Shown here piece by piece: positions 31,844 through 49,250 of a stretch of 54,769 nucleotides of DNA. The stretch is from an uncultured Flavobacteriaceae bacterium. Its GTDB lineage: Bacteria > Bacteroidota > Bacteroidia > Flavobacteriales > Flavobacteriaceae. Under the pieces are notes generated by a model. That model was not told the DNA's origin and did not search any database. It saw only the letters and a program-made list of their open reading frames with translations. Location: the NCBI GenBank assembly GCA_905480425.1, contig CAJQQG010000020.1:1-54769 (forward strand), given 5' to 3'. How positions within the stretch are numbered: the stretch's first letter is position 1; every line of letters begins with the position of its first letter. Made by a program: the position numbers and the translations under genes.

Positions 31844-33949
31844 ATGAAAATCAATTTCCTTTTAATTCCGACTATTTATCTATTCACTCTTCAGTTATCT
31901 ATTGCTCAATATGAAGGCTATTCTTCTTCTTCATGGGAGAAACAATTAAGAACAGAAGCCCTTTTTATTAAACATCAAAATTCCAAATCTTTTAAAAATC
32001 ATTTAAGGGAGTTAACGGTTAGGCCTCATGTTGTTGGAAGTAAGGAAAACAAAAAAGTACAAGAATATATTTCAAAAGTCATGCAAGATGCGGGACTTTC
32101 TGTAAAAAACTACCCTTATGACGTCTATCTTCCAAAAGAACCCGGATATTCATTAATTGAAATTGTAACACCCAAAAGAGAAGTTCTTAATCAAAAAGAA
32201 GATATTATTTTAAATGATCCATTTTCTAGGGATTCGTTGCTATGGAAGGGATGGAATGCATTTTCTGGAAGTGATGATGTTACAGCTGAAGTGGTTTATG
32301 CAAACTATGGTAGAAAAGAAGATTTTGAAAAATTAAAAAAATTGGGAATTGAGGTTGAAGGAAAAATTGTTTTGGCGCGGTATGGAGGAAATTTTAGAGG
32401 GTTTAAAGCAAAGTTTGCTGAACTTAGTGGAGCTAAAGGACTCCTTATTTTTACAGATCCTAAAGACAGTGGTTTCACTAAAGGTTTAGTCTATCCTGAA
32501 GGACCATATTATAATAATAGTACCATACAAAGAGGGTCTTTACTTACCACAGATTTTACTGGGGATCCTTTGACTCCTTTTGAACCTGCATTACCTCTTG
32601 ATGGAAAACAAAAAATTAAACGTTTAAGTCCAAAGAATGCTCAACTACATAGCATACCAGTAACTCCAATTGCATACGGTGAAGCAGAAAAAATATTAAA
32701 ACAAATGAAAGGCAGTCCTGTTCCCCAAGCATGGCAAGGTGGACTACCGTTCACTTATAGACTGGATGGAGGCAAAGACTTAACAGTGAGATTAAAGGTT
32801 GATCAAAAGATTGATTTTGTAAGAGCAACAAATGTTGTGGGGATGATCAAAGGAAGTGATGCTCCAAATGAATGGATTATTTTAGGGAGTCATTATGATG
32901 CATGGGGGTTTGGGGCAACAGACCCAAATAGTGGAACCGCTATGCTACTTAATTTAAGTGAAACTCTTGGTAAGTTATTAAAAGAGGGAAACCGTCCTAA
33001 AAGATCTATCCTAATTGCACATTGGGATGCTGAAGAACATGGCGTAATTGGATCTAGTGAATGGGTAGAGCAAATGCGGGATGAATTAAATGCTAAGGCG
33101 ATTGTTTACATGAATTTTGATGGAGGGGTGTCTGGAAAGAATTTTGGTGCCTCATCTGCACCAACACTTAAAAAATTACTCCTTGAAGTTTCTAAGAAAA
33201 TTCAATATCCTTATTCAAATCAGAATCTATATGAATTTTGGAGAAAAAAGGATCAAATCAAACCTTATATAGGGAATTTAGGAGGAGGGTCTGATCATAT
33301 TGCTTTCTATATGCATGTTGGTGTACCGTCCCTTAGCGGAGGAGCTGGAGGGCCAAATCTTTATCATTCAAATTATGATAGCTTTCAATTTTATGAGAAG
33401 TTTGTGGATCCTGAATTTAAAATGGGTCCAATGGTTGAGCAAATGGCTGGTTTAATGGCACTTCGAATGGCAAATGGTATACTAATACCCTACAATATTA
33501 ATAAATATCATCATGATTTAAAGATACATTTCGATTCTGCAACTCTAAAAATAAAAAAATATAGTAACACTTTTGAAGGCTTTAAAAAAGCTTCTAATGC
33601 AATTATTCAACTTGAAAAAACTAGTGAAATACTAACTAATAATATTGAAATATTTTTAAAGAAAAATAAATTGCCAAAAAAAATAATTTCAAAATTAAAC
33701 CAACAATTAATTGCTCTTGAAAAAAGTTTTATCTCTGAAAAAGGAATGTATTTTGGATCTTGGTATAAGTCATTATATTCATCTTCAGATCCTTTCAGCG
33801 GTTATGCATCTTGGATATTACCTGGACTTGAGTACGAAATAGCTTTAAAATCATCTAGAAGATTAAAAGAGTGGGATGACAGATATACTAAAGCAATAAA
33901 TTCACTAAATACTAAAATGAAGAGATTAAATGAGGAAATAATCAAATAG
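31844..33949 (+). CDS. secreted M28 peptidase, glutamate carboxypeptidase II-like
   Basis: The 701-residue protein has a signal peptide (ending LSIAQ), a PA domain (about residues 130-280) inside an M28 catalytic domain, and a C-terminal dimerisation domain like that of transferrin receptor/PSMA. The co-catalytic zinc ligands are visible: GSHYDAWGFGATDPNSG, the acid WDAEEHGVIGS, the aspartate in YMNFDGGVSG, and the late histidine in LYHSNYDSF. Human homologues release C-terminal glutamate from peptides such as N-acetyl-Asp-Glu. Here it probably trims peptides outside the cytoplasm. Its stop overlaps that of convergent ptsI by 8 bp. Confidence 0.9.
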   Translation: MKINFLLIPTIYLFTLQLSIAQYEGYSSSSWEKQLRTEALFIKHQNSKSFKNHLRELTVRPHVVGSKENKKVQEYISKVMQDAGLSVKNYPYDVYLPKEPGYSLIEIVTPKREVLNQKEDIILNDPFSRDSLLWKGWNAFSGSDDVTAEVVYANYGRKEDFEKLKKLGIEVEGKIVLARYGGNFRGFKAKFAELSGAKGLLIFTDPKDSGFTKGLVYPEGPYYNNSTIQRGSLLTTDFTGDPLTPFEPALPLDGKQKIKRLSPKNAQLHSIPVTPIAYGEAEKILKQMKGSPVPQAWQGGLPFTYRLDGGKDLTVRLKVDQKIDFVRATNVVGMIKGSDAPNEWIILGSHYDAWGFGATDPNSGTAMLLNLSETLGKLLKEGNRPKRSILIAHWDAEEHGVIGSSEWVEQMRDELNAKAIVYMNFDGGVSGKNFGASSAPTLKKLLLEVSKKIQYPYSNQNLYEFWRKKDQIKPYIGNLGGGSDHIAFYMHVGVPSLSGGAGGPNLYHSNYDSFQFYEKFVDPEFKMGPMVEQMAGLMALRMANGILIPYNINKYHHDLKIHFDSATLKIKKYSNTFEGFKKASNAIIQLEKTSEILTNNIEIFLKKNKLPKKIISKLNQQLIALEKSFISEKGMYFGSWYKSLYSSSDPFSGYASWILPGLEYEIALKSSRRLKEWDDRYTKAINSLNTKMKRLNEEIIK

Positions 33950-35570
33950 TATTTCTTATTTCATTTTTAATCTTTGGTATCAGAGAAGGAGGCATACTCA
34001 AAGAGTTTATGTTGATGTTTAGAAAATAAGATAAACATTTTTCATCAGATGCTAGTTCACCACAAACACTGACTTCTTTACCTTCCTTATGAGCGAGTTC
34101 CGTAAAATTTTTAATCAAAATAAGAATACTTTCTTTGCTTTGAGATAAGTAATTCGAAACACTTTCGTTAGTTCTATCTGCGGCCATTAAGAATTGAGCC
34201 AAATCATTAGTTCCAAAAGAAAAGAAGTCTACATTTTCAATATAAAATTCAGGACGAAAAGCTACGTTTGGAATTTCAACCATAATTCCAACACGAGGCA
34301 AATGATTTATTTTGATTCCCTCACTATTTAGTTGATTAAATTCAAGTATTATTGTTTCTTTAATTTGAATCCAATCCTCTTCACTAGCAATCATTGGACA
34401 TAAAATATGGATATTGAAAAGGTTTGAAAGACGCAATAAAGCTCTGATTTGAGGTTTTAGAAGATTATCATAATGTTTAAATCCTAAACGAAGAGCTCTA
34501 GAACCAAGTGCCGGATTTTCTTCTTTTATATTATTTAAATAAGATAAAGGTTTGTCTGAACCAAAATCAAGAAGTCTTATTGTATGCTTAACCTCAGGGA
34601 ATTCTTTTAAAATAGATTCATAAACTGAATAATGCATGTTTTCATTTGGAAACTTTTCTGAATTTAAAAAACATAATTCAGTTCTAAACAAACCAATTCC
34701 ATCAGCACCGAAAGACTTTGCTTTTTTAGCATCATCTAATGAACCAATATTTGCGTTAATTTCAATACTAGTTCCAGATTTAGTAGTAACATTATTATGA
34801 CTTTTTTTAAGTTGAATTGATGATTCATGTTTTTCTTTGAGCATTAATAAATCATATTTTTTTACATAAAATAGAGATGGATTCAAAATGAGTTGGGCTT
34901 TTGCACAATCAATAATTAATAAAGATCCAGCCTTAATTTTTGATATACTCTTAGCTAATCCAACTAAAGAGGGAATACCTAAAGCCTTTGAAAGTATTGC
35001 GACGTGATCTGTAGGCCCTCCATGTGAAGTGATAATTCCTAACACAAGATTTTTATCAATAGATGACAATTGATTCGTGGTAATTGAATCTGCTACAATT
35101 ATAGAGGGTGTATTTAGAGTAATTTTGTTTTCTTCTTTTTTCTGAAGTATGAGGATTAGCATCCTACTCAACATTACTATGTCATCAGCACGTGCGCTAA
35201 TATAGGGATCCCCTAATTCATTTAAAATTTCAGTGTATTCAGCAGTAACTTCATGAACAGCATAATCAGCATTACAACTATTTGATTTTATAAAATCAAT
35301 TGTTTTCCCTTCTAACTCGGGGTCTTTTAATATTTCTAGGTGAGCATCATAGATTTTTATTTCTTCTTTAGATAAAGAATTAATCATTTTTTGTTTTAAA
35401 TCTAAAGTCTTCGCCTGAGCAATTAAAAGAGCTTGTTTAAATTGTTTAATTTCACTTTCGATAGATGAAATTTTACTTTTAATTATATTTAAAGAGTAAT
35501 TTTCATTCAAGAGAAAAGCTGGACCCATGGAGGTGCCAAATGAAGCCGATATGCCATTTAAAGTTCTAAT
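33942..35570 (-). CDS. ptsI: phosphotransferase system enzyme I
   Basis: EI takes phosphate from phosphoenolpyruvate and passes it to HPr. Motifs: active-site GGPTDHVAILSKALGIPSLVG, GADGIGLFRTELCFL, the PEP-binding DFGSDKPLSYL and ALGSRALRL, NDLAQFLMAADR and CGELASDE. The first ATG (35528) would cut off the conserved GISAS start; the frame continues upstream through LNGISASFGTS with no ATG, GTG or TTG. I therefore place the start at ATT 35570, which overlaps the ptsH stop (ATTAG). With that start the active histidine falls at residue 189, as in E. coli EI. The protein would have 542 residues, slightly shorter than usual. It is the last gene of the leftward operon. Confidence 0.92.
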   Translation of the reverse strand: MRTLNGISASFGTSMGPAFLLNENYSLNIIKSKISSIESEIKQFKQALLIAQAKTLDLKQKMINSLSKEEIKIYDAHLEILKDPELEGKTIDFIKSNSCNADYAVHEVTAEYTEILNELGDPYISARADDIVMLSRMLILILQKKEENKITLNTPSIIVADSITTNQLSSIDKNLVLGIITSHGGPTDHVAILSKALGIPSLVGLAKSISKIKAGSLLIIDCAKAQLILNPSLFYVKKYDLLMLKEKHESSIQLKKSHNNVTTKSGTSIEINANIGSLDDAKKAKSFGADGIGLFRTELCFLNSEKFPNENMHYSVYESILKEFPEVKHTIRLLDFGSDKPLSYLNNIKEENPALGSRALRLGFKHYDNLLKPQIRALLRLSNLFNIHILCPMIASEEDWIQIKETIILEFNQLNSEGIKINHLPRVGIMVEIPNVAFRPEFYIENVDFFSFGTNDLAQFLMAADRTNESVSNYLSQSKESILILIKNFTELAHKEGKEVSVCGELASDEKCLSYFLNININSLSMPPSLIPKIKNEIRNTI

Positions 35571-35835
35571 AATTGGTTGTAAAGTTATTTTTAATCAATT
35601 CTTCTAAAGTCTCCAAAGCCTTTATTTCATCAGTACCATTTGCACAAATTTTAATCACATCTTGACTTTTAACACCTAAAGTCATTAATGATAAGGTACT
35701 TTTTCCATTTCCCTTTTTATCATTAAATTCTATGAAGATTTCGGATTGAAAAGCAGATGCTTGTTTTGCAAATAATGAAGATGTGCGTGCATGAAATCCA
35801 ATTTCATCTTTAATTTTAATTATTTTTTCAATCAT
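35566..35835 (-). CDS. ptsH: phosphocarrier protein HPr
   Basis: HPr relays phosphate from EI to EIIA. The 89-residue protein has the active-site segment IGFHARTSS with His15 and Arg17, and GKSTLSLMTLGV with Ser46, the residue phosphorylated by HPr kinase in organisms that have it; no kinase gene is in the window. Its ATG overlaps the EIIB stop by 4 bp and its stop overlaps the proposed ptsI start, so the three cytoplasmic PTS proteins are translationally coupled. Confidence 0.94.
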   Translation of the reverse strand: MIEKIIKIKDEIGFHARTSSLFAKQASAFQSEIFIEFNDKKGNGKSTLSLMTLGVKSQDVIKICANGTDEIKALETLEELIKNNFTTNY

Positions 35836-36149
35836 GAAGTTTGAGATATTAATTCTTCAGCTTGGTTTAATATAGAGATAGGGTCCCTAACTGCCTTATT
35901 AACACTTACATCCAAAATTATTTTATTTTCAAAACGATTTTTACCTGATATAGTGATCATTTTAGCAATAATTACTATGTCTGATTCTATTATTTGTTCA
36001 GGTGTTAATTTTACAGATATTTTATGCCCTCCTTGTTCTTCAATATAAATTTCGTGACCTCTTTTTAATGCTTCTTTTTTTAAAGCAGTTGCAGCCATTT
36101 TACTATGTGCAACTCCTGCAAGACAGGCTGTTATTAAAGATATTTTCAT
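35832..36149 (-). CDS. fructose-family PTS EIIB
   Basis: The 105-residue domain accepts phosphate from EIIA on a cysteine and gives it to the incoming sugar. Cys9 sits in TACLAGVAHSKMAATAL, clearly the fructose-family phosphocysteine loop, although the usual Pro-Thr after the Cys is replaced by Leu-Ala. It is a free-standing subunit rather than part of an EIIBC fusion. Its order between EIIC and HPr, with a 10 bp gap and a 4 bp overlap, places it in the same unit. The substrate cannot be deduced from the sequence. Confidence 0.88.
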   Translation of the reverse strand: MKISLITACLAGVAHSKMAATALKKEALKRGHEIYIEEQGGHKISVKLTPEQIIESDIVIIAKMITISGKNRFENKIILDVSVNKAVRDPISILNQAEELISQTS

Positions 36150-36159
36150 AAACTAATAT

Positions 36160-37221
36160 TTAGGATTCATTAATTTGTTTATCAATTGCATTTAATTTAG
36201 CTATATCTCGATTGCTTATACTCTTTAAAAGATTTACAGATAAAGCTGTAATAACTGATCCCACAACTACACAGATTACGAAAACTATTGGTTTATTATA
36301 AAAAAACCATTGAGCTATTCCTAAAACAGGAGTGCTTAATTCTAATAAAAAATAACCTGCAATAAATCCAGAAATAGTTGATCCTAAGGCTGTTGCTATT
36401 GTAACTCTAATTAAATCACCTACTGCTAATGGTATTACAATTTCTGTAAAACCACCAACTATTGCATAAACCCATGAGCTTTTTGCATATTGAAGTTCAG
36501 AAATAGTGTATAATTTTGGTCTTAAAAAAGTTGCTAAGCACAATCCTAAAGGAGGAACAGTTACTATAGATCCACAAATCCCTAGAGGAACAAATAAATT
36601 CAAATCCATTACAGCAGTTGCAAATGTACTTTGAGTTTTACTAAACGGTCCACCATAATCAACACCTCCTAAAAATCCCATCACTGCTCCCATAGTGGCT
36701 GATCCCTGTTCATTTAGGTTAGTCAAAAAATCAGAAATTACACCCATAATCCATGCAATTGGCGGACCCAAGAAATATACCATAAAAATAACGACAGCTA
36801 TTGTACTTAGTACAGGAGCCATAAATCCCCATGTGCTCTGTAACATAGACGGAAGTTCAACTTTTAAAAGCATATAGGTCACATATCCAACTAAAATTCC
36901 TCCAAGAAGAGCTCCCAAATAACCAGTATCAATTTGTTGAGCCAATACACCAACAATAAAACCTGGCGCTATACCGGGAGTATCGGTAATACTAAAGGCA
37001 GTATATGCAGCCATAATTGGAACAAAATAAGTCAGGCCAATAGTTCCAATATCTTTAAACACCATCCATATAGAGTCTTCAGCAATATTATTCCCTCCAA
37101 TTACAGCTAGGCTTCCTACCATTCCACCAATTAATAAAACAGGTAACATGTAGGAAACACCTGTTCTAAAATGTGTGCCAGTATTTTTAAAAATGCTTAT
37201 TGTTTCTTTCCAAAAATTCAT
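36160..37221 (-). CDS. fructose-family PTS EIIC permease
   Basis: The 353-residue membrane protein has about nine or ten hydrophobic helices and fructose-family EIIC landmarks: TGVSYMLPVLLIGGMVGSLAV near the start, SITDTPGIAPGFIVG, and GALLGGILVGYVTYML. A histidine or glutamate pair typical of the sugar site is seen in GGFTEIVIPLA. The EIIC domain stands alone, so the EII complex here is three separate polypeptides. It lies 2 bp from EIIA and 10 bp from EIIB. The transported compound is unknown. Confidence 0.88.
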   Translation of the reverse strand: MNFWKETISIFKNTGTHFRTGVSYMLPVLLIGGMVGSLAVIGGNNIAEDSIWMVFKDIGTIGLTYFVPIMAAYTAFSITDTPGIAPGFIVGVLAQQIDTGYLGALLGGILVGYVTYMLLKVELPSMLQSTWGFMAPVLSTIAVVIFMVYFLGPPIAWIMGVISDFLTNLNEQGSATMGAVMGFLGGVDYGGPFSKTQSTFATAVMDLNLFVPLGICGSIVTVPPLGLCLATFLRPKLYTISELQYAKSSWVYAIVGGFTEIVIPLAVGDLIRVTIATALGSTISGFIAGYFLLELSTPVLGIAQWFFYNKPIVFVICVVVGSVITALSVNLLKSISNRDIAKLNAIDKQINES

Positions 37222-37223
37222 GA

Positions 37224-37667
37224 TTAAACTTTATTAAACGAACTAAAAATTTCTTTTTCAGAAGTTGCAGATAACCATTTTGCTCTTATGTCTTCCTCTA
37301 AGGCTAATTTCGCTACCTCTGACATCATTTCAATATGACTATTTTCTTCTCCCACCTTAGCAATTGGTATTGCGAGTAAAATAACAAACTGGGCTAACTC
37401 ATCACCTTCATCCCAAGTTAGGCCAGAGGTTCTTCCAAAAGCAAAAGAAGGTTCTATAACTTCATTACTTTCTGCGTGAGGAATAGCGATACCATATCCA
37501 CAATAGGTAGAAAGTAGATTTTCCCTATCTAATACAGCTTTCAAATAATGTTCTTTATTTTTAATTTTACCTAAATCACAAAGTTGATCGATTAAAAATT
37601 TAATTACATCTGTTTTAGATGTAATATTAATATCTAAAGAAATATAAGAAGGAATTAAATTCTCCAT
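37224..37667 (-). CDS. fructose/mannitol-family PTS EIIA
   Basis: The 147-residue domain transfers phosphate from HPr to EIIB. The phosphorylated histidine is His64 in GYGIAIPHAESNEV, the standard context of the PTS_EIIA type-2 fold, with DRENLLSTYCG just before it. The family also includes nitrogen-regulatory PtsN, but the operon position next to EIIC and EIIB argues for a transport role. Confidence 0.92.
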   Translation of the reverse strand: MENLIPSYISLDINITSKTDVIKFLIDQLCDLGKIKNKEHYLKAVLDRENLLSTYCGYGIAIPHAESNEVIEPSFAFGRTSGLTWDEGDELAQFVILLAIPIAKVGEENSHIEMMSEVAKLALEEDIRAKWLSATSEKEIFSSFNKV

Positions 37668-37676
37668 TGTATTTAT

Positions 37677-38378
37677 TTAAGATTGCGCTTTATTTATTGC
37701 TTCAGCACAACGTTTAAAACCAGCAGTAATACCATCAGGATCCTTAAAAATTGCAGACGATAATACAACTACGTCTGGTTTACAAGCAATAAGTGGAGCT
37801 AAATTATCTACTCGAATTCCACCATCAATTGCAATCTCGCAATCTGGATTTTTTTCATCAACTAGTTTTCTGGCTCGTTTTAATAAATCTAAACATGATC
37901 TTCTCCAGCCCCAATTATCTTTTCCGTCAGTTTCATCGACTCCGTGGACCACAACATGTAATCTGTCTATATCGTAAATAGATTCCTCAACAAAAGAGAG
38001 TGGTGTATATAGTCCAATAGTCAGTCCTACTTTTATAGATCGTTCTCTACACCAATTGATTATGTATGCTAAGGGTGCTCCAATAAAATGTTCTGCTGGT
38101 ATAATTAACATATTTGTCCCAACCTGAGCTAGCTTATCAATAAAAAGTAGATCACATGTTTTCGTATATATGTGGCACTCAATGGGTTTAGATGTGTGAT
38201 TTCTTATACCCTCAATAATTTGATGCCCTCCCATTAATTGCATATTTTTTAAATCATGCATATCTGCAGCATCAGAATGAATATAGTCTGCCCCTGCAGC
38301 AGAAGCTTCCTTTACAATATCTGCCAAATGACCATAATCAACATGGGCGAGACCTGCCGCTATTTTAATTTTTTTCAT
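37677..38378 (-). CDS. ribulose-phosphate 3-epimerase family protein
   Basis: The 233-residue TIM barrel resembles Rpe/AlsE. Metal ligands of the family are retained: His34 and Asp36 in DYIHSDAADM, His69 in IECHIYTK and Asp185 in AIDGGIRVDNL. The phosphate-binding GSAIF segment is changed to LSSAIF. The usual MDG after the first Asp is changed to AADMHD and the mobile MTVNPGFGG loop is replaced by VHGVDETDG, so the substrate likely differs from ribulose-5-phosphate. In this operon it would act on the phosphorylated PTS product, moving an epimeric ketose phosphate into central metabolism. That role is inference. Confidence 0.82.
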   Translation of the reverse strand: MKKIKIAAGLAHVDYGHLADIVKEASAAGADYIHSDAADMHDLKNMQLMGGHQIIEGIRNHTSKPIECHIYTKTCDLLFIDKLAQVGTNMLIIPAEHFIGAPLAYIINWCRERSIKVGLTIGLYTPLSFVEESIYDIDRLHVVVHGVDETDGKDNWGWRRSCLDLLKRARKLVDEKNPDCEIAIDGGIRVDNLAPLIACKPDVVVLSSAIFKDPDGITAGFKRCAEAINKAQS

Positions 38379-38383
38379 ATCGT

Positions 38384-39535
38384 TTATTTATACAAACTAT
38401 CTTTCATTAGTTGAACAATAGTTTCACTATTATTAGGTTGCAAATTAATTAACAAAGGATGTCTCATAATATCTTTTGACTCCTCATTTGATATTTTGGA
38501 TTTTTCCAATACAGTATTTAATCCCGTGACTTTAAACAAATCAACTAAACAATTACGCAAGGAAGAAGGGTCAGATTCTAATCCAAGATATTCTGCTACT
38601 TTAATGAATTTTTTTGGAGCTATTTTTTCTTTATATTTTAAAAAAGCAGGATAGACTATTGCAAGAGTATCTCCGTGAGCAATTCTAGAACAAATACCTC
38701 CAATAATTTCACCTAATGGGTGAGGTAAATCTGCTCCCCCATTTGCCAAACACATTCCTGCTAGTGTATCTGCCCTAGCTAAATTGCTTCGAACCTTAAT
38801 GTTATTTGAATCTTTAATGGCTTTTGGTAAGTTTTGAATTACTAGTTTAATAGCTTGTAAAGACATCTGTTCTGTAATCGGAGAGACACGACTTCCAAGA
38901 AAACTTTCAAAAGCATGAGTAAAAGCATCAAATCCTGTTGCTGCTGTTACAGAAGAGGGAACTGAAAGCATTAGCTCTGGATCTACAATTGCTAAAGCTG
39001 GAAATAATGCAGAATGAAAAAAAGTGACTTTATTTTTAGTTTTTGTATCACTAACTACAGCCGCTTGAGTACAATGCGAACCTGATCCTGAGGTTGTTGA
39101 AACAGCAATAAAAGGTAAAGCAGCCTCTGGTTTAGGTGATATCGCAAATGGATCATCATATTTTGATTTAGCTTCCTCCCAGTTAATATTTACATTTTCA
39201 TTATATAATAAAGCAATAAGTTTTGCCGTATCCAAAACAGATCCACCACCTATTCCAATAACAAAATCAACTTGATTTGCAACTGCTAAGGCTAATCCCT
39301 TTTCAACTCCTTCTAATGTTGGGTTAGGAATAACTTCATCAAAAAATGATACCTCAATATTAGCAGACCTAATTATTGATATGATTTCTTCAAAAGTTTC
39401 TTTTAATGATCCATTTAAAGGGCGTGAAACCATTAGACACTTCTTTCCATAAAATGGTAAGATATCTTTTAGATCTTTACGTCTCCCTGTTCCAAATCGA
39501 ATTTGTGTGGGAACAAAAAAATTAAATGAATTCAT
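38384..39535 (-). CDS. iron-containing (group III) alcohol dehydrogenase
   Basis: The 383-residue enzyme has the GGGS NAD-binding segment (IGIGGGSVLDTAK near 95-105), TTSGSGSH, and all four metal ligands of the family: Asp203 and His207 in GFDAFTHAFES, His272 in ADLPHPLGE and His287 in SRIAHGDTLA. Relatives oxidise or reduce small diols, aldehydes and sugar alcohols (FucO, glycerol dehydrogenase, phosphonate-linked enzymes). Next to an epimerase and a PTS it could oxidise a phosphorylated polyol or reduce an aldehyde product; this is inferred from context only. Spacing to its neighbours is 5 and 14 bp. Confidence 0.9.
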   Translation of the reverse strand: MNSFNFFVPTQIRFGTGRRKDLKDILPFYGKKCLMVSRPLNGSLKETFEEIISIIRSANIEVSFFDEVIPNPTLEGVEKGLALAVANQVDFVIGIGGGSVLDTAKLIALLYNENVNINWEEAKSKYDDPFAISPKPEAALPFIAVSTTSGSGSHCTQAAVVSDTKTKNKVTFFHSALFPALAIVDPELMLSVPSSVTAATGFDAFTHAFESFLGSRVSPITEQMSLQAIKLVIQNLPKAIKDSNNIKVRSNLARADTLAGMCLANGGADLPHPLGEIIGGICSRIAHGDTLAIVYPAFLKYKEKIAPKKFIKVAEYLGLESDPSSLRNCLVDLFKVTGLNTVLEKSKISNEESKDIMRHPLLINLQPNNSETIVQLMKDSLYK

Positions 39536-39549
39536 TCTATTATTTGGAT

Positions 39550-40938
39550 TTAACTTATTGGTTCAAATTTAGCTGTAAAGTGACGTAAACTAATAATAGG
39601 ACCCTCATATATCAATTTTAAACCTTTCATCTCATTCCGCCGTTCAAATACATCTGCAAGAGCATTAACAACAACATCCATATGCCGATTTGTATATACT
39701 CTCCTAGAGACTGTAAGTCGAACAAGTTCTAAGTCTGGAAAAATAATTTTTCCTGTTTCAGGATTTTTTTTTGAAAAGGCACATGAACCAAGTTCAACTC
39801 CTCTTACGCCACCTGTTTTAAATAATTCAACCACCATGGCCTGACCAGGAAATTCAGATTGAGGAATATTAGGATAAAATTTTTGAGCATCAACATACAC
39901 TCCATGTCCGCCTGTTGGTAAAATTATTGGAACTCCTTTTTTTGCTAATTGTTCTCCTAAATAAGCGACTTGATTAATTCTATATTCTAAGTAGTCTTCT
40001 TCAACTCCCTCATATAAGCCAATTGCGAGTGCCTCTAGATCCCTTCCACTCATTCCACCATAGGTTACGAATCCCTCATTGATTATTGCTAATTGATTAA
40101 TAGCAGGAAATAGTTCTTCGTGCCTAGTGCAAATAAAACCTCCTATATTAACTAATCCATCTTTTTTAGAACTCATAACACATCCATCTGCATAGGAAAA
40201 TAACTCAAGGGCTATCTCTTTGATGGTCTTATCCTCATAACCTTCTTCTCTCATTTTTATGAAATAACAATTTTCTGCAAATCTAGCTGCATCAATCATC
40301 AATGGAATCTTGTTAGCTTTTGCAATTACAGAAACCATTCTTATATTATTAATTGAAACAGGTTGCCCTCCATTTCCATTACTTGTAATTGTAATAATGA
40401 TTAATGGTATATTTTCAGAACCATGTTGTTTAATAAAATTTTGCAATTTTTTGATATCCATGTTTCCTTTAAAAGGATGTGGATTTGAATTTGCAGTTCT
40501 TCCTTCTTCAATAATCAGATCAACAGGTATTGAACCTGCAATTTCTGCATGACCTTTAAAACTATCAAAGTGTAAATTTCCTAAAATATATCCTCCTTTT
40601 TTTGCATACAATTGTGACATAATAAAATCAGCTGCTCGCCCTTGATGAGTGGGTTGCATATATGGAAATCCCATAATGTCTTGAACGGAATTTCGAAGGT
40701 TATAAAAGCTCTTACTTCCAGCATATGACTCGTCTCCTTTCATCACTCCAGCCCACTGATTACTACTCATAGCAGAGGTTCCACTATCAGTAATCATATC
40801 GATATAAACCTGTTCAGCTTCAAGTCTAAAAACATTAAAATCTGCTTTTTTTATCCACTCTTCTCTTTCTGGCCTTGTTGACTTTTTTATTGGTTCAATG
40901 ACCTTAATTCTAAAAGGTTCTGCATTTAAAAATTTCAT
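39550..40938 (-). CDS. tryptophanase-like PLP-dependent beta-eliminating lyase
   Basis: The 462-residue protein belongs to the tryptophanase/tyrosine phenol-lyase family, which splits the amino acid into pyruvate, ammonia and indole or phenol. Family blocks include TDSGTSAMSSNQWAGVM, PTHQGRAAD, TITSNGNGGQPVS, IDAARFAEN and the PLP lysine in MSSKKDGLVN (Lys259). Two positions that separate the subfamilies point to tryptophanase: the residue after Phe124 is Asp125, as in TnaA and unlike the Thr of tyrosine phenol-lyase, and Leu383 replaces the Arg that binds the phenol-lyase substrate. It is the second gene of the leftward operon, after an indoleamine-dioxygenase homologue. Real substrate unproven. 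Confidence 0.88.
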   Translation of the reverse strand: MKFLNAEPFRIKVIEPIKKSTRPEREEWIKKADFNVFRLEAEQVYIDMITDSGTSAMSSNQWAGVMKGDESYAGSKSFYNLRNSVQDIMGFPYMQPTHQGRAADFIMSQLYAKKGGYILGNLHFDSFKGHAEIAGSIPVDLIIEEGRTANSNPHPFKGNMDIKKLQNFIKQHGSENIPLIIITITSNGNGGQPVSINNIRMVSVIAKANKIPLMIDAARFAENCYFIKMREEGYEDKTIKEIALELFSYADGCVMSSKKDGLVNIGGFICTRHEELFPAINQLAIINEGFVTYGGMSGRDLEALAIGLYEGVEEDYLEYRINQVAYLGEQLAKKGVPIILPTGGHGVYVDAQKFYPNIPQSEFPGQAMVVELFKTGGVRGVELGSCAFSKKNPETGKIIFPDLELVRLTVSRRVYTNRHMDVVVNALADVFERRNEMKGLKLIYEGPIISLRHFTAKFEPIS

Positions 40939-40967
40939 TCAGTTTATATGTTTTATTTAGTTAAATA

Positions 40968-40979
40968 TAATGATTTTAA
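40968..40979. promoter_or_regulatory. TAATGATTTTAA motif upstream of the tryptophanase-like gene
   Basis: The same 12-mer also occurs at 42428-42439 and 52762-52773, each time in a promoter-proximal intergenic stretch. It could be a shared regulator site, but the sequence is AT-rich and chance is possible. Confidence 0.3.
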
Positions 40980-40995
40980 AGTTTGAGTATTTTAA

Positions 40996-42393
40996 TCAAA
41001 TCTTATCATCATTTAATTTCATTTCTTTATTCAACTTATAAACCTTGGCTGGATCATATGATTTTTTATTTAAAATTTCAAGTTGCTTCTTTAGTAAAGA
41101 TCTTTTTCGGTCAAATTCTTCTTTCCAAAAAGGTAGATTTGATTTTATCAATTTTTGAGGTAATTTATTGAAATTTATTTCCATAGTGTTTAAAACAGCC
41201 GTTATTTGATTTGGAATCCACGAGATAATAGGTGTTCCCCCAGTAGCTTTTGGATAAACAGTATTTTGCATAATGTATTTTTGAACAAACTGCCAATGAC
41301 CATTTCTAAAAGCATAAATTTCATCAAGTAATAACAACAATATTAATATTCCCTCAAAATTATTTGAATGCTCCAGACGTTCAATTAATGAATTAGATTT
41401 TTCTGAAAAATAAACTCTTGTATCTTCCAAAAAAGATTGAATACACATAGGTCTATAACTCCTTAAATCATTTAAATAGTGTGTAAGTTCATTTTTTGGA
41501 TACTGATTTATAACTCCTGAAAAAATATCCATAAGGGGAATAATATTATCTTGAGCTCCAGTTTGACCTCGATATTTTTGTGGCTTATCACTTACATTTT
41601 CATAAACTAAACCATCACCAAAAATTTCATCATTCCCTTTGATACCCATAATAAAAATTCGAAAATCATTATAATGTTCCCATCTAGATGCTGTCCACAT
41701 TAGTTGTCTTCTTTCATTAATTTTAATCATTGTTTTATAACCTAGATCTAAAGCTTTATTAAGTTGTTTATCAGAATTTGAGTTTTGTAGGTCAATTACG
41801 GATTTCACAAGGTTAGGAGAATGTTGATTAATATCTACATGAAGCATAATAAAACCACGCTCATCGTCCATACCTGAAAAACTACATGCCATTCCAAGAT
41901 TTTCCCAATTCAGACCTCCTTTTGGATCAATCTTAAAATAATTCCCCAATGAATAAGCATAGTGATAATCTAAAAAAGGATAGACATCTAGTTTTTTGGC
42001 TACAATAGAAAATGGTTCAGCAATTTGATTAGGTAAAAAAACATTTGCCTTTCCGTATTTATTATTTTCAAGAAAATAAAAATGGGCAGGGGCAAGTGTG
42101 AAAGAAGAAGTTATAAATGCATAACACCGGAACAAGGCTTGAATAATAAACGGATCTTTTTCTAATGTGACTTCATTTTTAAAATTAGTTATGTTTGCAA
42201 CTCTTTTTTCAACCTCTCCTTTAAATGACAAAATACCTCTATTGTTTTGATCTTTTAAAATAGGAAGATCATCTATAAATATTTGAAGTGATTTATATAA
42301 TTCAGGCAAATACCTTAAGGGCTCTTTTATTGGAAGGAATCCGTTTTTTTCATTAACGTCAAAAAAGCCATCTGAGTAAATTTTTCTAATCAT
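40996..42393 (-). CDS. indoleamine 2,3-dioxygenase-like heme protein
   Basis: The family opens the indole ring of tryptophan and related indoles with O2, giving N-formylkynurenine-type products. The 465-residue protein keeps the family signature blocks: FIMGIKGNDEIFGDGLVYEN near 247-266 (compare SGWKGN and DGLVYEG of animal enzymes), QTGAQDNIIPLMDIFSGV, YLNDLRSYRP, the presumed proximal heme histidine His366 in FRNGHWQFVQKYI, and ATGGTPIISWIPNQ in place of the GTGGT loop. A charged C-terminal tail of about 50 residues is extra. It is the first gene of the leftward operon, just downstream of the inverted repeat. Known relatives act on free indoleamines; here the partner genes suggest tryptophan or a tryptophan conjugate. 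Confidence 0.85.
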   Translation of the reverse strand: MIRKIYSDGFFDVNEKNGFLPIKEPLRYLPELYKSLQIFIDDLPILKDQNNRGILSFKGEVEKRVANITNFKNEVTLEKDPFIIQALFRCYAFITSSFTLAPAHFYFLENNKYGKANVFLPNQIAEPFSIVAKKLDVYPFLDYHYAYSLGNYFKIDPKGGLNWENLGMACSFSGMDDERGFIMLHVDINQHSPNLVKSVIDLQNSNSDKQLNKALDLGYKTMIKINERRQLMWTASRWEHYNDFRIFIMGIKGNDEIFGDGLVYENVSDKPQKYRGQTGAQDNIIPLMDIFSGVINQYPKNELTHYLNDLRSYRPMCIQSFLEDTRVYFSEKSNSLIERLEHSNNFEGILILLLLLDEIYAFRNGHWQFVQKYIMQNTVYPKATGGTPIISWIPNQITAVLNTMEINFNKLPQKLIKSNLPFWKEEFDRKRSLLKKQLEILNKKSYDPAKVYKLNKEMKLNDDKI

Positions 42394-42407
42394 TAAAAAT
42401 AATTTTA

Positions 42408-42460
42408 GTTGATTAATTTTAATAAGTTAATGATTTTAATTTGTTTCTAAATTAATCAAC
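42408..42460. promoter_or_regulatory. 12 bp inverted repeat in the divergent operon promoter region
   Basis: GTTGATTAATTT (42408-42419) and AAATTAATCAAC (42449-42460) are perfect complements separated by 29 bp. One copy of TAATGATTTTAA lies between the arms. A second short palindrome-like site, TTAAGCGCTAA, is at 42527-42537, closer to the rightward operon. No exact TAnnTTTG box is present on either strand in this 172 bp gap. Confidence 0.5.
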
Positions 42461-42565
42461 AACTAATTTTTAATACACAACGAGTTTATTAATTAAGTTT
42501 TAAATATATTTAGATATAAATAATCGTTAAGCGCTAACTTAAAGTGCTTTTGTATTTTCTAAAGC

Positions 42566-44233
42566 ATGATTAATAATCAACAAAAAGTCATACGAATTCA
42601 CCCTAAAGACAATGTTCTAGTTGCATTAATTAATTTAAAAAAAGGTGACACAATTGATTTTGAAAATAAATCATATATCTTAAACGAGGATATAGCAGCA
42701 AAACATAAATTCACAACAAAAAAAATTGATGAAGGAGATTTAGTCTATATGTATGGGGTTATAGTGGGAAGAGCGATAAAAAAAATCGGGAAAGGATGTA
42801 TTATTAATAGTTCTAATTTAATTCATGAAACTGAAAATCATAGTATTAAGTCTCATCAAAAAAAGTCTAAATGGAATGCTCCTCCACTTATAGATTTTAA
42901 AAATAAAACATTTGATGGATACCACAGAGATAATAAAAGTGTGGGTACTGAAAATAATTGGCTTGTAATTCCATTAGTTTTTTGTCAAAATAGAAATATT
43001 GAGGTTTTGAAACAGGCGTTAGTTGAAAAACTAGGCTTTGGAAAAAAAAATCACTTAGGCTTGGATGTTCAATCCTTAATTGATAGTTATAAAGCAAAAG
43101 AAAGTAATGAAGTTATCTTAAATAAAAATATAATTGTTGATCCCGAAGAAAAATCCAAAAATCCACTCTTTCCTAATGTTGATGGTATCAAATTCCTAAC
43201 TCATGATGGTGGTTGTGGTGGTGCTTCCAGTGACGCAATAACACTTTGCAATTTACTTGCTGGATATATTAACAATTCAAATGTAGCGGGTGCAACTATT
43301 CTGAGTTTAGGATGTCAACATGCACAAGCAAGTATTTTAGTGACTGCTTTGAAAAGAATGTCACCTAAAATTACAAAACCCGTATACATTTTAGAACAGC
43401 AACAAAGTAACTCAGAAAAAGAATTTTTGGCTGCAGCAGTTAAAAAAACATTTATTGGATTAATTGAGGCTAATAAAATAGTTCGAGAGCCTGCTTCATT
43501 GAGTAAATTGATTATTGGTTTGGAGTGTGGAGGTTCAGATGGTTTTTCTGGTATTTCAGCAAATCCAACCTTAGGATATGTTTCTGATTTATTAGTTGGA
43601 CTTGGAGGCACAACCATCTTGTCAGAATTTCCTGAACTAAGTGGCGTAGAACAAGAATTAATTAATCGGTGTGTAGATCCAAAAAAAGCAGTAAAATTCA
43701 ATTCTCTGATGACAGATTACAACTCAAAGGCCGAGGCACTTGGAGCAGCATTTTCAATGAACCCATCTCCTGGAAATATTAAAGATGGATTAATTACAGA
43801 TGCAATAAAATCAGCAGGAGCGGCTAAAAAAGGTGGTACCTCTCCTATTATAGATGTATTAGATTATACAGAGCAAGTAATAACTCCTGGATTAAATTTG
43901 TTGTGCACCCCAGGAAATGATGTAGAATCGACAACTGGACTTGCAGGCTCCGGTGCTAACATTATATTATTTACTACAGGACTTGGAACCCCTACCGGAA
44001 ATCCGATTACTCCAGTAATCAAAATATCTTCAAATAGTTACTTGTACAACAAAATGCGAGATATTATTGATTTTAATACGGGTAGCATAATTGAGGGCAC
44101 ATGTTCTATAAAAGAAAGTGGTGAAGCCTTATTAAATTTTATTATCAAAATTGCTAGTGGAAAAATAAAGCCAAAAGCACGTAATTTAAATCAAGATGAT
44201 TTTATTCCTTGGAAAAGAGGAATGTCACTTTAA
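42566..44233 (+). CDS. UxaA/altronate-dehydratase-family sugar-acid dehydratase, probably L-fuconate dehydratase
   Basis: The 555-residue protein joins an N-terminal SAF domain (about residues 1-95) to a UxaA C-terminal domain. The latter shows THDGGCGGASSDA, LGCQHAQAS, VGLECGGSDGFSGISANP and LGYVSDLLVGLGGTTILSE, all typical of this iron-dependent dehydratase family. Characterised members dehydrate altronate or galactarate. In this operon the reaction needed is L-fuconate to 2-keto-3-deoxy-L-fuconate, usually done by an enolase-family enzyme, which is absent here; the substrate assignment rests on context. First gene of the rightward operon. Confidence 0.82.
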   Translation: MINNQQKVIRIHPKDNVLVALINLKKGDTIDFENKSYILNEDIAAKHKFTTKKIDEGDLVYMYGVIVGRAIKKIGKGCIINSSNLIHETENHSIKSHQKKSKWNAPPLIDFKNKTFDGYHRDNKSVGTENNWLVIPLVFCQNRNIEVLKQALVEKLGFGKKNHLGLDVQSLIDSYKAKESNEVILNKNIIVDPEEKSKNPLFPNVDGIKFLTHDGGCGGASSDAITLCNLLAGYINNSNVAGATILSLGCQHAQASILVTALKRMSPKITKPVYILEQQQSNSEKEFLAAAVKKTFIGLIEANKIVREPASLSKLIIGLECGGSDGFSGISANPTLGYVSDLLVGLGGTTILSEFPELSGVEQELINRCVDPKKAVKFNSLMTDYNSKAEALGAAFSMNPSPGNIKDGLITDAIKSAGAAKKGGTSPIIDVLDYTEQVITPGLNLLCTPGNDVESTTGLAGSGANIILFTTGLGTPTGNPITPVIKISSNSYLYNKMRDIIDFNTGSIIEGTCSIKESGEALLNFIIKIASGKIKPKARNLNQDDFIPWKRGMSL

Positions 44234-44294
44234 TAATTAATTTAATTGTTTGAGGCAAACAAAAAATAATAGATAATCATACTTATTTTGAAAA

Positions 44295-45077
44295 ATGATA
44301 AAATTTAGTTTGAAAAATAAAACAGTAATTGTTACTGGAGGTGGAAGTGGTATTGGAAAAGCAATTTCGAAAACCTTTGCCAAACAGGGAGCTAAAGTAC
44401 ATATTTTAGATTTTAATGAAACAAGTCTCAAAGAGACGGTTTCTGAAATTAATTTATTAACATCTAGTGCTGAAGGATATTTTTGCGATGTATCAATACA
44501 GAAGGAGGTAAATTTGATAATTAAAAAAATTACAGAAAAAAACAATATTGATATCTTAATCAATAATGCAGGTATAGCACATGTAGGAAATATAGAATCT
44601 GTTGAAGAAAATGATCTTGATTTATTGTATAATGTAAATATAAAAGGAATTTACAATTGCATTAAAGCAACTATTCCTTCAATGAAAAAATCAAAAAGTG
44701 GAGTAATTCTAAATTTAGCTTCAATTGCATCCTCTGTAGGTATTAATGATAGGTTTGCTTACTCAATGTCAAAGGGAGCTGTTCTTTCAATGACCTATTC
44801 AATCGCAAAAGATTATTTAACATCTAACATCAGATGTAATTGCATTTCACCCGGAAGAGTTCACACACCCTTTGTGGATGGGTTCATTAAGAAAAACTAT
44901 CCGGAAAAGCAGAAAGACATGTTTAAAAAACTATCTCAATCACAGCCAATTGGTAGAATGGGAAAACCTCAAGAAATTGCTGACTTAGCTTTATTTCTAT
45001 GTTCGGATGAAGCTGGTTTTATTACAGGTTCTGATTATGCGATAGACGGGGGCTTTATAAAATTAAATGGTAAGTAA
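44295..45077 (+). CDS. SDR oxidoreductase, probably 2-keto-3-deoxy-L-fuconate dehydrogenase
   Basis: The 260-residue short-chain dehydrogenase has TGGGSGIGKAI for the cofactor, an Asp after beta-2 (ILDFNETS, favouring NAD), NNAGIAHVG, catalytic Ser in LASIASSVG and YSMSKG, and the C-terminal block NCISPGRVHTPFVDGF plus IDGGFIKLN. In the non-phosphorylating fucose pathway this step makes the 2,4-diketo acid that the FAH-family hydrolase next door cleaves. The two genes are 17 bp apart. The SDR fold is certain; the substrate is inferred from the operon. Confidence 0.85.
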   Translation: MIKFSLKNKTVIVTGGGSGIGKAISKTFAKQGAKVHILDFNETSLKETVSEINLLTSSAEGYFCDVSIQKEVNLIIKKITEKNNIDILINNAGIAHVGNIESVEENDLDLLYNVNIKGIYNCIKATIPSMKKSKSGVILNLASIASSVGINDRFAYSMSKGAVLSMTYSIAKDYLTSNIRCNCISPGRVHTPFVDGFIKKNYPEKQKDMFKKLSQSQPIGRMGKPQEIADLALFLCSDEAGFITGSDYAIDGGFIKLNGK

Positions 45078-45094
45078 ATAATAGTTTAAATTAT

Positions 45095-45952
45095 ATGAAA
45101 TTAATTCGATTTGGAGAGGTAGGTAAAGAAAAACCTGGAATAATATTAGCGAATGGAACTAAAATAGATGTCTCAGACTTTGGTAGCGATTATGATGAAT
45201 TTTTTTTTGGTAATAATGGTCTCCAAAGATTAAAAGATTGGTTAAAAATAAATAAAGAAAATTGTCCTGTTATAGATAAGTCTATTAGACTAGGCGTTCC
45301 TTTAGTTCGACCATCTAAAATTGTTTGTGTTGGATTAAATTACACTAAACATGCTGAAGAAAGTGGCATGGAGATTCCTAAGGAACCTGTGCTATTTTTT
45401 AAAGCTACTTCTGCATTATCTGGACCTTTTGATAAAATTATCATTCCCAAAAATAGTAAAAAAACAGATTGGGAGGTTGAGTTGGCGATTATTATCGGAA
45501 AAAAAGCATCTTATATTACCAAAGAAGAAGCTTTAGAGCATGTTGCAGGCTATGTTCTTCATAATGATGTCAGCGAACGTGAATTTCAACTAGAACGCTC
45601 TGGACAATGGGTTAAGGGAAAAAGCTGCGATACATTTGCACCTATTGGACCTTTCATAGCGACTAAAGATGAAATAAAAAACCCCAATAACTTAAATCTT
45701 TGGCTTAAAGTAAATGATAAGATAATGCAAGATAGTTGTACATCAGATTTTATTTTTAACGTCCAACACGTTATTAGCCATATAAGTCAGTTCATGACTC
45801 TTTTACCAGGAGATATTATTTCAACAGGTACTCCGTTTGGTGTTGGCTTAGGACTTACTCCACCATTATACTTAAAACATGGAGATATTGTAGAGTTAGG
45901 AATTGAGGGTCTGGGAGAATCAAAACAACACGTTATTACTTACGAAAAATGA
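45095..45952 (+). CDS. FAH-family hydrolase, probably 2,4-diketo-3-deoxy-L-fuconate hydrolase
   Basis: The 285-residue protein has the fumarylacetoacetate hydrolase fold: CVGLNYTKHAEESG, then metal-binding acids in DWEVELAIIIGKKA and HNDVSEREFQLERSGQW, and the active-site region KSCDTFAPIGPF followed by ISTGTPFGVGLG. Relatives split 2,4-diketo acids into two smaller acids. For L-fucose the products would be pyruvate and L-lactate, which fits the lactate-oxidising gene at the operon end. The stop overlaps the next start by 4 bp. Confidence 0.86.
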   Translation: MKLIRFGEVGKEKPGIILANGTKIDVSDFGSDYDEFFFGNNGLQRLKDWLKINKENCPVIDKSIRLGVPLVRPSKIVCVGLNYTKHAEESGMEIPKEPVLFFKATSALSGPFDKIIIPKNSKKTDWEVELAIIIGKKASYITKEEALEHVAGYVLHNDVSEREFQLERSGQWVKGKSCDTFAPIGPFIATKDEIKNPNNLNLWLKVNDKIMQDSCTSDFIFNVQHVISHISQFMTLLPGDIISTGTPFGVGLGLTPPLYLKHGDIVELGIEGLGESKQHVITYEK

Positions 45953-46776: not shown

Positions 46777-46781
46777 TAAAG

Positions 46782-47564: not shown

Positions 47565-47581
47565 CATTTAGTAATATAATT

Positions 47582-48892: not shown

Positions 48893-48895
48893 ATA

Positions 48896-49240: not shown

Positions 49241-49250
49241 AAATATACCG

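What the first reader, a model, noticed from the sequence alone, without database searches (positions are those of the whole stretch)
33942..42393. Nine-gene operon joining an IDO-like dioxygenase and a tryptophanase to a complete PTS
Seen: nine leftward genes with gaps under 60 bp or overlaps, in the order IDO-like, tryptophanase-like, iron alcohol dehydrogenase, Rpe-like epimerase, EIIA, EIIC, EIIB, HPr, EI. Known: each family is well defined, but PTS is rare in Flavobacteriaceae and EI/HPr are normally shared and encoded away from specific EIIs. Inference: this is a self-contained pathway that phosphorylates an imported compound and uses two enzymes acting on tryptophan side chains or indole rings. 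I know of no described system with this gene set, so it may be a new catabolic route.
Basis: partly seen in the sequence, partly recalled or inferred. Interest (0 to 1): 0.8.

Follow-up and report, generated by a model that had tools for sequence, protein, structure and literature searches.

The report
PTS operon with its own tryptophanase
A marine bacterium carries an operon, shared in part with gut and sea bacteria, that seems to import and phosphorylate an unknown compound and has its own tryptophan-splitting enzyme; it is a candidate for the unsolved question of how bacteria eat sugar-decorated tryptophan.

Summary
The nine genes are real, in the stated order, with gaps of 57 bp or less. 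Eight are a conserved unit; the IDO-like gene is not part of it. TnaA-like, Rpe-like and EIIC occur in the same 15 of 38 genomes of the genus; IDO is in 6 of 38 and overlaps in 2. The order TnaA-FeADH-Rpe-EIIA-EIIC-EIIB-HPr-EI recurs in 21 of 76 relative loci. In 39 of 76, mostly Firmicutes and Vibrio, the Rpe-like gene sits with a glucose-type PTS and usually an M20 dipeptidase; in 7 of 76 with a peptide ABC transporter and peptidases. The linked tryptophanases (28 of 28) form one clade (support 0.999) that keeps tryptophanase-type pocket residues but fails the tryptophanase and tyrosine phenol-lyase equivalog cut-offs. The genome has a separate, canonical-looking Rpe. No glycosidase cluster that I recognised is in more than 3 of 76 loci. 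Best reading: uptake and breakdown of a sugar-amino-acid or glycopeptide conjugate of tryptophan. C-mannosyl-tryptophan is my leading, unproven candidate; reviews say its bacterial degradation mechanism is unknown.

The parts
40996..42393 (-). IDO-like haem dioxygenase (465 aa), first gene, lineage-specific addition
   Evidence: PF01231 121.5 bits; in the alignment with human IDO1 it keeps the His and Arg that I recall as haem ligand and substrate contact, and has His where most IDO1 chains have Ser. In 6 of 38 genus genomes, with the PTS in 2.
39550..40938 (-). Operon-type tryptophanase (462 aa), a separate clade of the TnaA/TPL family
   Evidence: NF009709 661.6 bits, below the TIGR02617, NF053783 and TIGR02618 cut-offs; clade 28 of 28, support 0.999; D125 and H453 in 28 of 28, L383 in 27 of 28 where TPL has Arg.
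38384..39535 (-). Iron-containing alcohol dehydrogenase (383 aa)
   Evidence: PF00465 159.6 bits, none of the 17 NCBIfam hits reaches its cut-off; nearest solved relatives are methanol dehydrogenases.
37677..38378 (-). Rpe-like TIM-barrel protein (233 aa), core of a family spread over several phyla
   Evidence: PF00834 90.4 bits, TIGR01163 92.1 (cut-off 212.6); 76 loci at 59-99% identity; model pLDDT 89.4, RPE fold; H34, D36, H69 in 79 of 79 and D185 in 78 of 79 aligned sequences.
37224..37667 (-). PTS EIIA, fructose/mannitol type (147 aa)
   Evidence: PF00359 108.8 bits; candidate phosphorylation site His64 in IPHAES (motif recalled).
36160..37221 (-). PTS EIIC, fructose family (353 aa)
   Evidence: TIGR01427 178.4 bits, cut-off 157.55; 33-34% identity to the 5 hits listed of 209 plasmid records.
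35832..36149 (-). PTS EIIB, fructose type (105 aa)
   Evidence: PF02302 55.2 bits; TIGR00829 68.3 (cut-off 76.85); candidate phosphorylation site Cys9 (motif recalled).
35566..35835 (-). HPr (89 aa), the only one found in the assembly
   Evidence: PF00381 83.3 bits; candidate phosphorylation site His15 (motif recalled).
33942..35528 (-). PTS enzyme I (528 aa from the first ATG), the only one found in the assembly
   Evidence: TIGR01417 426.1 bits; candidate phosphorylation site His175 in GGPTDHVAI (motif recalled).

Best explanation
A dedicated catabolic operon for a sugar-amino-acid or small glycopeptide conjugate whose amino acid is tryptophan. Proposed order of events: (1) EIIC/EIIB/EIIA, fed by the operon's own EI and HPr, import the conjugate and phosphorylate its sugar (parts shown, act inferred). 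(2) The Fe-ADH and the metal-binding Rpe-like TIM barrel work on the sugar half: the ADH makes a ketone or aldehyde by reversible oxidation, and the Rpe-like protein abstracts a proton next to it, so that the sugar is epimerised or split from the indole (inferred). (3) The operon-type tryptophanase cleaves the freed tryptophan, or its still-modified form, to the indole, pyruvate and ammonia (inferred from family and pocket residues). (4) The sugar phosphate enters the pentose-phosphate or glycolytic pool; transketolase, transaldolase, RpiA or PPi-phosphofructokinase genes sit beside the core in some relatives. C-mannosyl-tryptophan fits best: it has no O-glycosidic bond, it is a Trp conjugate, and it is reported from marine sponges and ascidians. 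The IDO-like enzyme is an optional oxygen-dependent side branch in one lineage.
For: Unit: TnaA, Rpe-like and EIIC in the same 15 of 38 genus genomes; eight-gene order in 21 of 76 loci, Rpe first in 2 more. Dedicated lyase: 28 linked TnaAs from Flavobacteriaceae, Bacteroidales, Clostridia and Bacilli are one clade against 35 others; D125 and H453 in 28 of 28, as in 33 of 35 others (the two exceptions are the TPL branch); F127, S411 and S450 in 28 of 28 linked and 0 of 35 others, G346 in 28 of 28 and 1 of 35. Dedicated Rpe-like: another PF00834 protein in the genome scores 264 bits against 90. Peptide side: M20 dipeptidase in 35 of 39 glucose-PTS loci; in the 7 Opp loci amidohydrolase in 7, M29 peptidase in 6, M3 in 5; M28 peptidase converges on the window operon and follows EI in L045; M12B-like peptidase close to EI in 4 genomes. 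Glycosidases: none among the 17 commonest neighbour clusters by their representatives. Sugar side: Tkt, Tal and RpiA in 7 of 7 Vibrio loci, Tkt in L045 and L073. Literature: C-Man-Trp in ascidians and sponges, used by a bacterial consortium, mechanism unknown (PMC8433626 and PMC12990085, passages); the sponge isolate Maribacter halichondriae holds this operon (L018), and its paper lists tnaA, PTS genes and hxlA as found in it alone of six Maribacter strains (PMC10942906, passages).
Against: No experiment links any of these genes to a Trp-sugar conjugate. TnaA is in only 4 of 39 glucose-PTS loci and 1 of 7 Opp loci, so it is not core everywhere; Opp loci have no PTS, and I recognised a kinase-like gene in one only (L034). 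L010 has Rpe-PTS but no TnaA or ADH upstream, with no Ns in the sequence. The Fe-ADH is 54-93% identical in flavobacterial loci but only 34-54% elsewhere, so it may not be specialised. A pentose-phosphate outlet is not the obvious fate of a mannose conjugate. I know of no RPE or Fe-ADH family enzyme that breaks a C-glycosidic bond. Glycosidases are not wholly absent: GH3 in L010, L011, L015 and in L007/L026, L028; GH1 in L035 and its cluster-mates in L042, L044. One review says mucin Cys domains are not C-mannosylated, which weakens a gut source. The M28 neighbour and fucose cluster were not seen beside the other flavobacterial operons listed, except in the close relative G555.
Confidence: 0.45

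Rival explanations
1. An ordinary sugar operon. The PTS imports a ketose or sugar alcohol, Fe-ADH and the Rpe-like epimerase convert its phosphate into a pentose-phosphate intermediate, and the tryptophanase is an add-on that supplies pyruvate, ammonia or indole signal.
For: RPE fold and metal ligands kept; Tkt, Tal and RpiA in the 7 Vibrio loci; EIIC nearest to fructose-like permeases; most Firmicute loci and all 7 Vibrio loci lack a linked TnaA.
Against: Does not explain M20, M29, M3, M18 and M24 peptidases and peptide ABC transporters beside the Rpe-like gene, nor why a single TnaA clade goes with the unit in four bacterial groups.
Confidence: 0.22
2. A glycated-peptide (Amadori) pathway: PTS or Opp imports fructosyl or psicosyl dipeptides, a peptidase trims them, the Rpe-like protein epimerises the bound ketose at C3, and amino acids such as Trp are then degraded.
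For: Peptidases plus sugar PTS plus a C3-epimerase fold; known Amadori operons also use PTS and epimerases (recalled: gfr, frl, fra). A SIS-domain gene lies next to EI, on the other strand, in L010 and L011, and another on the stretch of L065.
Against: No SIS-domain deglycase among the nine window proteins or the ten Firmicute cluster representatives scanned; SIS cluster c51 is in 3 of 76 loci. Known Amadori PTS are mannose-type (recalled). A Trp-specific lyase is not expected.
Confidence: 0.14
3. The lyase cleaves a sugar-bearing or other beta-substituted amino acid that is not tryptophan (S- or O-linked), as the E. coli malX-malY pair (EIICB plus PLP beta-lyase, function unsettled; recalled) might.
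For: TnaA and TPL accept many beta-leaving groups (recalled); the operon clade is sister to the TPL branch and has its own pocket-region changes.
Against: D125 and H453, the tryptophanase-type indole contacts (roles recalled), are in 28 of 28 linked sequences.
Confidence: 0.12
4. One reading: IDO and tryptophanase both act on the imported compound.
For: Same strand, 57 bp gap, in two closely related genomes.
Against: IDO not found in 13 of 15 operon-bearing genus genomes, and present without other operon genes nearby in 4 genomes in which the PTS was not found.
Confidence: 0.07

Closest known systems
Fructose-family PTS permeases (fruA, frwBC, MngA type)
   Same: EIIA_2, EIIB and EIIC parts; EIIC over the TIGR01427 cut-off.
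   Different: EIIC 33-34% identical to the five plasmid-collection hits listed of 209; EI and HPr inside the operon; coupled to TnaA, Fe-ADH and Rpe-like genes.
Tryptophanase (TnaA) and tyrosine phenol-lyase
   Same: Whole-length family match, Lys258-Lys259 and the Asp and His of the TnaA pocket.
   Different: Separate clade, under the three equivalog cut-offs, clade-specific changes.
Ribulose-5-phosphate and allulose-6-phosphate 3-epimerases
   Same: Fold and the four metal ligands (ligand role recalled).
   Different: 23-25% identity in the ten best structural matches, scores under the Rpe and AlsE cut-offs; Met positions and phosphate-loop motifs of RPE are replaced (alignments; roles recalled).
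C-glycoside deglycosylation systems (DgpABC, CarABC)
   Same: Proposed logic only: sugar oxidation followed by metal-assisted proton abstraction to break a C-C bond (search listing and abstract starts; details recalled).
   Different: No Gfo/Idh/MocA oxidoreductase among the nine proteins; no PTS there (recalled). A Gfo/Idh/MocA gene does lie upstream, on the other strand, in L010, L011 and L015 (L011 member scanned), not followed up.
E. coli malX-malY (recalled)
   Same: PTS EIICB next to a PLP beta-lyase; the Firmicute EIICB matches the MalX model TIGR02004 at 301.7 bits, under its cut-off of 632.2.
   Different: MalY is a different PLP family; no Rpe-like or Fe-ADH partner (recalled).

Membership tests
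Tryptophanase TnaA (TIGR02617, NF053783) | score above the curated equivalog cut-off | tested here: not met
   515.6 of 825.8 and 599 of 750 bits
Tryptophanase/TPL subfamily (NF009709) | score above the subfamily cut-off | tested here: met
   661.6 bits, cut-off 285
Tryptophanase TnaA | Asp and His indole contacts, no TPL-type Arg | tested here: met
   D125 and H453 28 of 28, L or I at 383 28 of 28; roles recalled
Tyrosine phenol-lyase (TIGR02618) | score above the curated equivalog cut-off | tested here: not met
   553.1 of 720.7 bits
Tryptophanase TnaA | releases indole from L-Trp | not testable with these tools
   needs an assay
Ribulose-phosphate 3-epimerase (TIGR01163) | score above the equivalog cut-off | tested here: not met
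   92.1 of 212.6 bits; the genome's other PF00834 protein scores 264 bits
Ribulose-phosphate 3-epimerase | fold and metal-binding residues | tested here: met
   best PDB matches are RPEs, TM 0.83; H34, D36, H69 79 of 79, D185 78 of 79
Indoleamine 2,3-dioxygenase (PF01231) | score over the gathering cut-off and conserved proximal His | tested here: met
   121.5 bits, cut-off 26; alignment, residue role recalled
PTS fructose family | EIIC above TIGR01427, EIIA above TIGR00848, EIIB above TIGR00829 | tested here: inconclusive
   EIIC met (178.4 over 157.55); EIIA 94.5 under 103.5; EIIB 68.3 under 76.85
Amadori-product PTS operons (gfr, fra) | SIS-domain deglycase in the operon | tested here: not met
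   no such domain in the nine proteins; SIS gene beside 2 relatives
DgpABC/CarABC C-deglycosylation system | Gfo/Idh/MocA 3-oxidase plus DgpB/C lyase | tested here: not met
   no Gfo/Idh/MocA or AP-endonuclease-type domain in the nine proteins

The most novel reading that the evidence does not exclude
The operon and its relatives are the bacterial C-mannosyl-tryptophan degradation system: PTS (or Opp) uptake of C-Man-Trp or C-mannosylated peptides, carbon-carbon glycosidic cleavage by a Fe-ADH plus RPE-fold enzyme pair, a new route to C-deglycosylation, and a dedicated tryptophanase for the tryptophan half.
Probability: 0.25. Interest if true: 0.85.

Novelty: new variant of a known kind. Interest (0 to 1): 0.62.

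Why it matters
Two reviews whose passages I read (2021 and 2026) say that bacteria can use C-mannosyl-tryptophan but that the mechanism is unknown. This operon names concrete, testable genes, one set of them in a cultured sponge bacterium. If right, it adds another enzyme solution for breaking a C-glycosidic bond and explains an otherwise puzzling PTS in Flavobacteriaceae. Even if the substrate is another one, the work sets apart an Rpe-like protein family whose window member does not reach the Rpe cut-off, and a tryptophanase clade that should not be annotated as plain TnaA.

Tried and rejected
Rejected: chance neighbours (order conserved). Rejected: IDO as a core member. Rejected: Rpe-like as the housekeeping enzyme. 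Kept as rivals: plain sugar PTS, Amadori pathway, other beta-substituted amino acid. Considered: retro-aldol release of ribulose-5-phosphate by an HPS-like reaction, which would explain the Tkt/Tal/RpiA neighbours; similarity to HxlA is weak (22.3 bits), so left as a thought. The promoter scan of 33700-42700 gave 40 promoter-like sites against 46.4 (sd 6.3) in shuffles, so it says nothing on transcription units. TAnnTTTG upstream of IDO: none in the window; 1 of 4 other upstream regions looked at. The tblastn of plasmid records gave one further Rpe-like family member among the 20 hits listed of 203 (Photobacterium, L148). The search uses peptides of the query, so its sharp fall from 59% to 27% identity may partly come from the method. 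Neighbour clusters rest on blastp clustering with Pfam or NCBIfam scans of representatives; the rest of each cluster was not scanned.

Literature: searches listed no paper that I saw to be on this gene set (open-licence PMC only; listings of at most 20). Of the papers listed I opened only the Maribacter one. Searches (malX-malY; C-deglycosylation) were seen as listings. The Hossain 2018 consortium paper itself was not seen, so which bacteria it holds is unknown to me. PMC13066745 and PMC8712536 were seen as passages.

Full report
1. Observation. By eye, each PTS protein but the permease has a phosphorylatable residue in its motif: EIIA His64, EIIB Cys9, HPr His15, EI His175 (motifs recalled). 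This is the only HPr and only EI N-domain found in the assembly of 1.85 Mb, 79 contigs, 85% complete. EI may begin upstream of its first ATG.

2. The unit without IDO. In the 38 genomes held of the genus (54-98% complete), EIIC is in 15, Rpe-like in 15 (E 1e-40 or better) and the operon-type TnaA in the same 15 (a sixteenth genome has a 19.6-bit match over 33 residues, and G531 has an additional TnaA at 50%). The three lists are identical; since the genes are adjacent, joint absence can also come from a missing contig. IDO is in 6 of 38, of which only the window genome and G555 have the PTS. I fetched 12-18 kb around each of the four other IDO genes: none of the other eight operon proteins has a blastp match there, and only two of the four share a downstream neighbour. 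So IDO has joined the operon in one lineage. By alignment it keeps the His and Arg of human IDO1 that I recall as haem ligand and substrate contact, and has His where most IDO1 chains have Ser, so it is plausibly an active Trp-type dioxygenase.

3. How far the unit reaches. A genome-contig scan with the Rpe-like protein kept the best 80 of 82 matches, 79 loci. I set three aside (L085-L087, 24-27% identity). The remaining 76 have 59-99% identity (one, L084, over 156 residues only): Flavobacteriaceae and other Bacteroidota, Clostridia, Erysipelotrichaceae, Bacilli, an Anaerolineales MAG and Vibrio. Several lie at contig ends, so absences are uncertain, and Acidaminobacter JC074 contributes three loci. 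By blastp and clustering: 25 of 76 have the fructose-type EIIC; 21 of these have TnaA-ADH-Rpe-EIIA-EIIC-EIIB-HPr-EI in order (20 titled Flavobacteriaceae, Flavobacteria, Flavobacteriales, Maribacter or only Bacteroidetes, 1 Salinivirgaceae), 2 Bacteroidales have Rpe first, L026 starts at the Rpe gene, and L010 lacks TnaA and ADH although its upstream sequence is present without Ns. 39 of 76 have a glucose-type EIICB: M20 dipeptidase in 35, Fe-ADH in 32, PRD regulator in 26, YitT in 21, EIIA-glc in 20, fructose-6-P-aldolase-like in 16, Cof phosphatase in 16, HbpS-like in 11, transketolase, transaldolase and RpiA in 7 each (the seven Vibrio), TnaA in 4. 7 of 76 are set apart by a peptide-type ABC binding protein: amidohydrolase in 7, M29 in 6, Fe-ADH in 6, M3 in 5, M24 in 2, TnaA in 1. 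5 of 76 are short or unclear. Cluster representatives were named by Pfam and NCBIfam.

4. TnaA. The TnaA relatives with over 400 aligned residues in the fetched loci were put in a tree: 28 non-identical sequences from the window and Rpe-linked loci, 35 others (29 from Flavobacteriales genomes, whose loci were capped at 30, and 6 from plasmid records). The 28 are monophyletic with support 0.999 (FastTree, midpoint root) and sister to a branch with an annotated tyrosine phenol-lyase. Asp125 and His453 are in 28 of 28 (33 of 35 others), Leu383 in 27 of 28 where the TPL branch has Arg. F127, S411 and S450 are in 28 of 28 and 0 of 35 others, G346 in 28 and 1, Y348 in 28 and 2; a two-residue insert before the Leu-Arg-His453 stretch is in 28 and in 1 of 35. 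The roles of these residues in TnaA and TPL are recalled.

5. Rpe-like. The genome's other PF00834 protein scores 264 bits against 90 for this one. In 24 chosen sequences of the family 57 positions are invariant; in a set of 79 the putative metal ligands H34, D36 and H69 are in all and D185 in 78. AlphaFold2 gives pLDDT 89.4, with residues 41-48 under 50; the first 37 PDB matches listed are RPEs or the allulose-6-phosphate epimerase. The Met positions and phosphate-loop motifs of RPE are replaced in the printed alignments, so the substrate should differ from ribulose-5-phosphate. Of 203 plasmid records with a match, 20 were listed: one (Photobacterium, 59%) is a family member, the other 19 are at about 30% or less.

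6. What it does. Facts to explain: a sugar-type PTS or a peptide ABC importer; several kinds of peptidase (M20, M29, M3, M24, M18 in L051); a redox enzyme; a metal enolising barrel; a Trp-type lyase in several lineages; pentose-phosphate enzymes in some. No glycosidase is among the 17 commonest neighbour clusters (one of them, c16, has no family match). Glycosidase genes do occur on single stretches: GH3 in L010, L011, L015 and in L007/L026 and L028, GH1 in L035 with cluster-mates in L042 and L044 (representatives scanned); GH2- or GH13-like ORFs in L038, L047, L054 and L057 are my reading. A glycopeptide or sugar-amino-acid conjugate without an ordinary glycosidic bond, with tryptophan as the amino acid, covers most of the facts. 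C-mannosyl-tryptophan is such a compound. The 2021 review reports it from ascidians and marine sponges and tells of a bacterial consortium that uses it, mechanism not clarified (PMC8433626, passages). The 2026 review repeats that the mechanism is not known, and adds that C-mannose is absent from mucin Cys domains, which goes against a mucin source in the gut (PMC12990085, passages); the 2021 review still counts mucins among the substrates. Another 2026 paper cites the same consortium work (PMC13066745, passages). The sponge isolate Maribacter halichondriae Hal144 carries the operon (L018); its description lists fruAb, fruA, ptsH, ptsI, tnaA and an hxlA as present in it alone of the six Maribacter strains compared; the passages I saw do not join them (PMC10942906, abstract and passages). 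That its hxlA is the Rpe-like gene is my inference. The divergent cluster of the window looks like a non-phosphorylating L-fucose pathway; thrombospondin repeats carry both C-mannose and O-fucose (recalled), but fucose is common in the sea and I saw this neighbourhood again only in G555, so this is at most suggestive.

7. Against. TnaA is missing from most Firmicute and all seven Vibrio loci, Opp loci lack a PTS and a recurrent kinase that I could recognise, the Fe-ADH falls to 34-54% identity outside the flavobacterial loci, and I know of no precedent for C-C cleavage by these two families. SIS-domain genes beside EI in L010 and L011 and a Gfo/Idh/MocA gene upstream in L010, L011 and L015 could point to the Amadori rival or to a known type of C-deglycosylation in those strains; I did not follow them. 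I give 0.45 to a Trp-sugar or glycopeptide conjugate and 0.25 to C-mannosyl-tryptophan with C-C cleavage by this enzyme pair.

8. Novelty. PTS catabolic operons and tryptophanases are known kinds; this combination was not found in the literature searched (open-licence PMC only). I rate it a new variant of a known kind, with a more novel reading left open.

Noticed in passing
window 42566-50396 (+): Divergent cluster that looks like non-phosphorylating L-fucose breakdown: galactarate-dehydratase-like, SDR, diketo-deoxy-sugar-acid hydrolase-like, fuconolactonase-like, L-fucose dehydrogenase and FucP (the last two over a cut-off), mutarotase-like, LldD-like.
   Followed up: partly
window 31844-33949 (+): M28 peptidase with PA and TfR-dimer domains converges on EI; the two ORFs overlap by 8 bp.
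   Followed up: no
L005:5001-6431: An IMG/VR contig that looks like a giant virus (my reading; Hsp70-like and other ORFs) encodes an IDO relative 46% identical over residues 1-462 to the window's IDO.
   Followed up: no
L006/L013, L007/L026, L028, L036, L029: A reprolysin (M12B)-like peptidase lies next to or two genes from EI in four genomes, and farther off, upstream of Rpe, in a fifth (L029).
   Followed up: partly
L039, L042, L043, L055: A PPi-dependent 6-phosphofructokinase cluster (L039 member scanned) is on the Rpe-like loci of four Firmicutes, directly upstream and divergent in L039 and L042.
   Followed up: no
L034, L047 and L073 (Acidaminobacter JC074): One genome has three Rpe-like loci, each with a different accessory set: Opp+TnaA; PTS+M20+TnaA+HPr+EI; PTS+split transketolase+HPr+EI.
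   Followed up: partly
L010, L011, L015: Three flavobacterial loci have a Gfo/Idh/MocA oxidoreductase and a GH3 gene upstream on the other strand (L011 members scanned); L010 and L011 also have a SIS_2 gene after EI.
   Followed up: partly
L037:14740-16251 (-): A phosphohexomutase-like ORF inside a Clostridium version of the cluster (my reading of the sequence).
   Followed up: no
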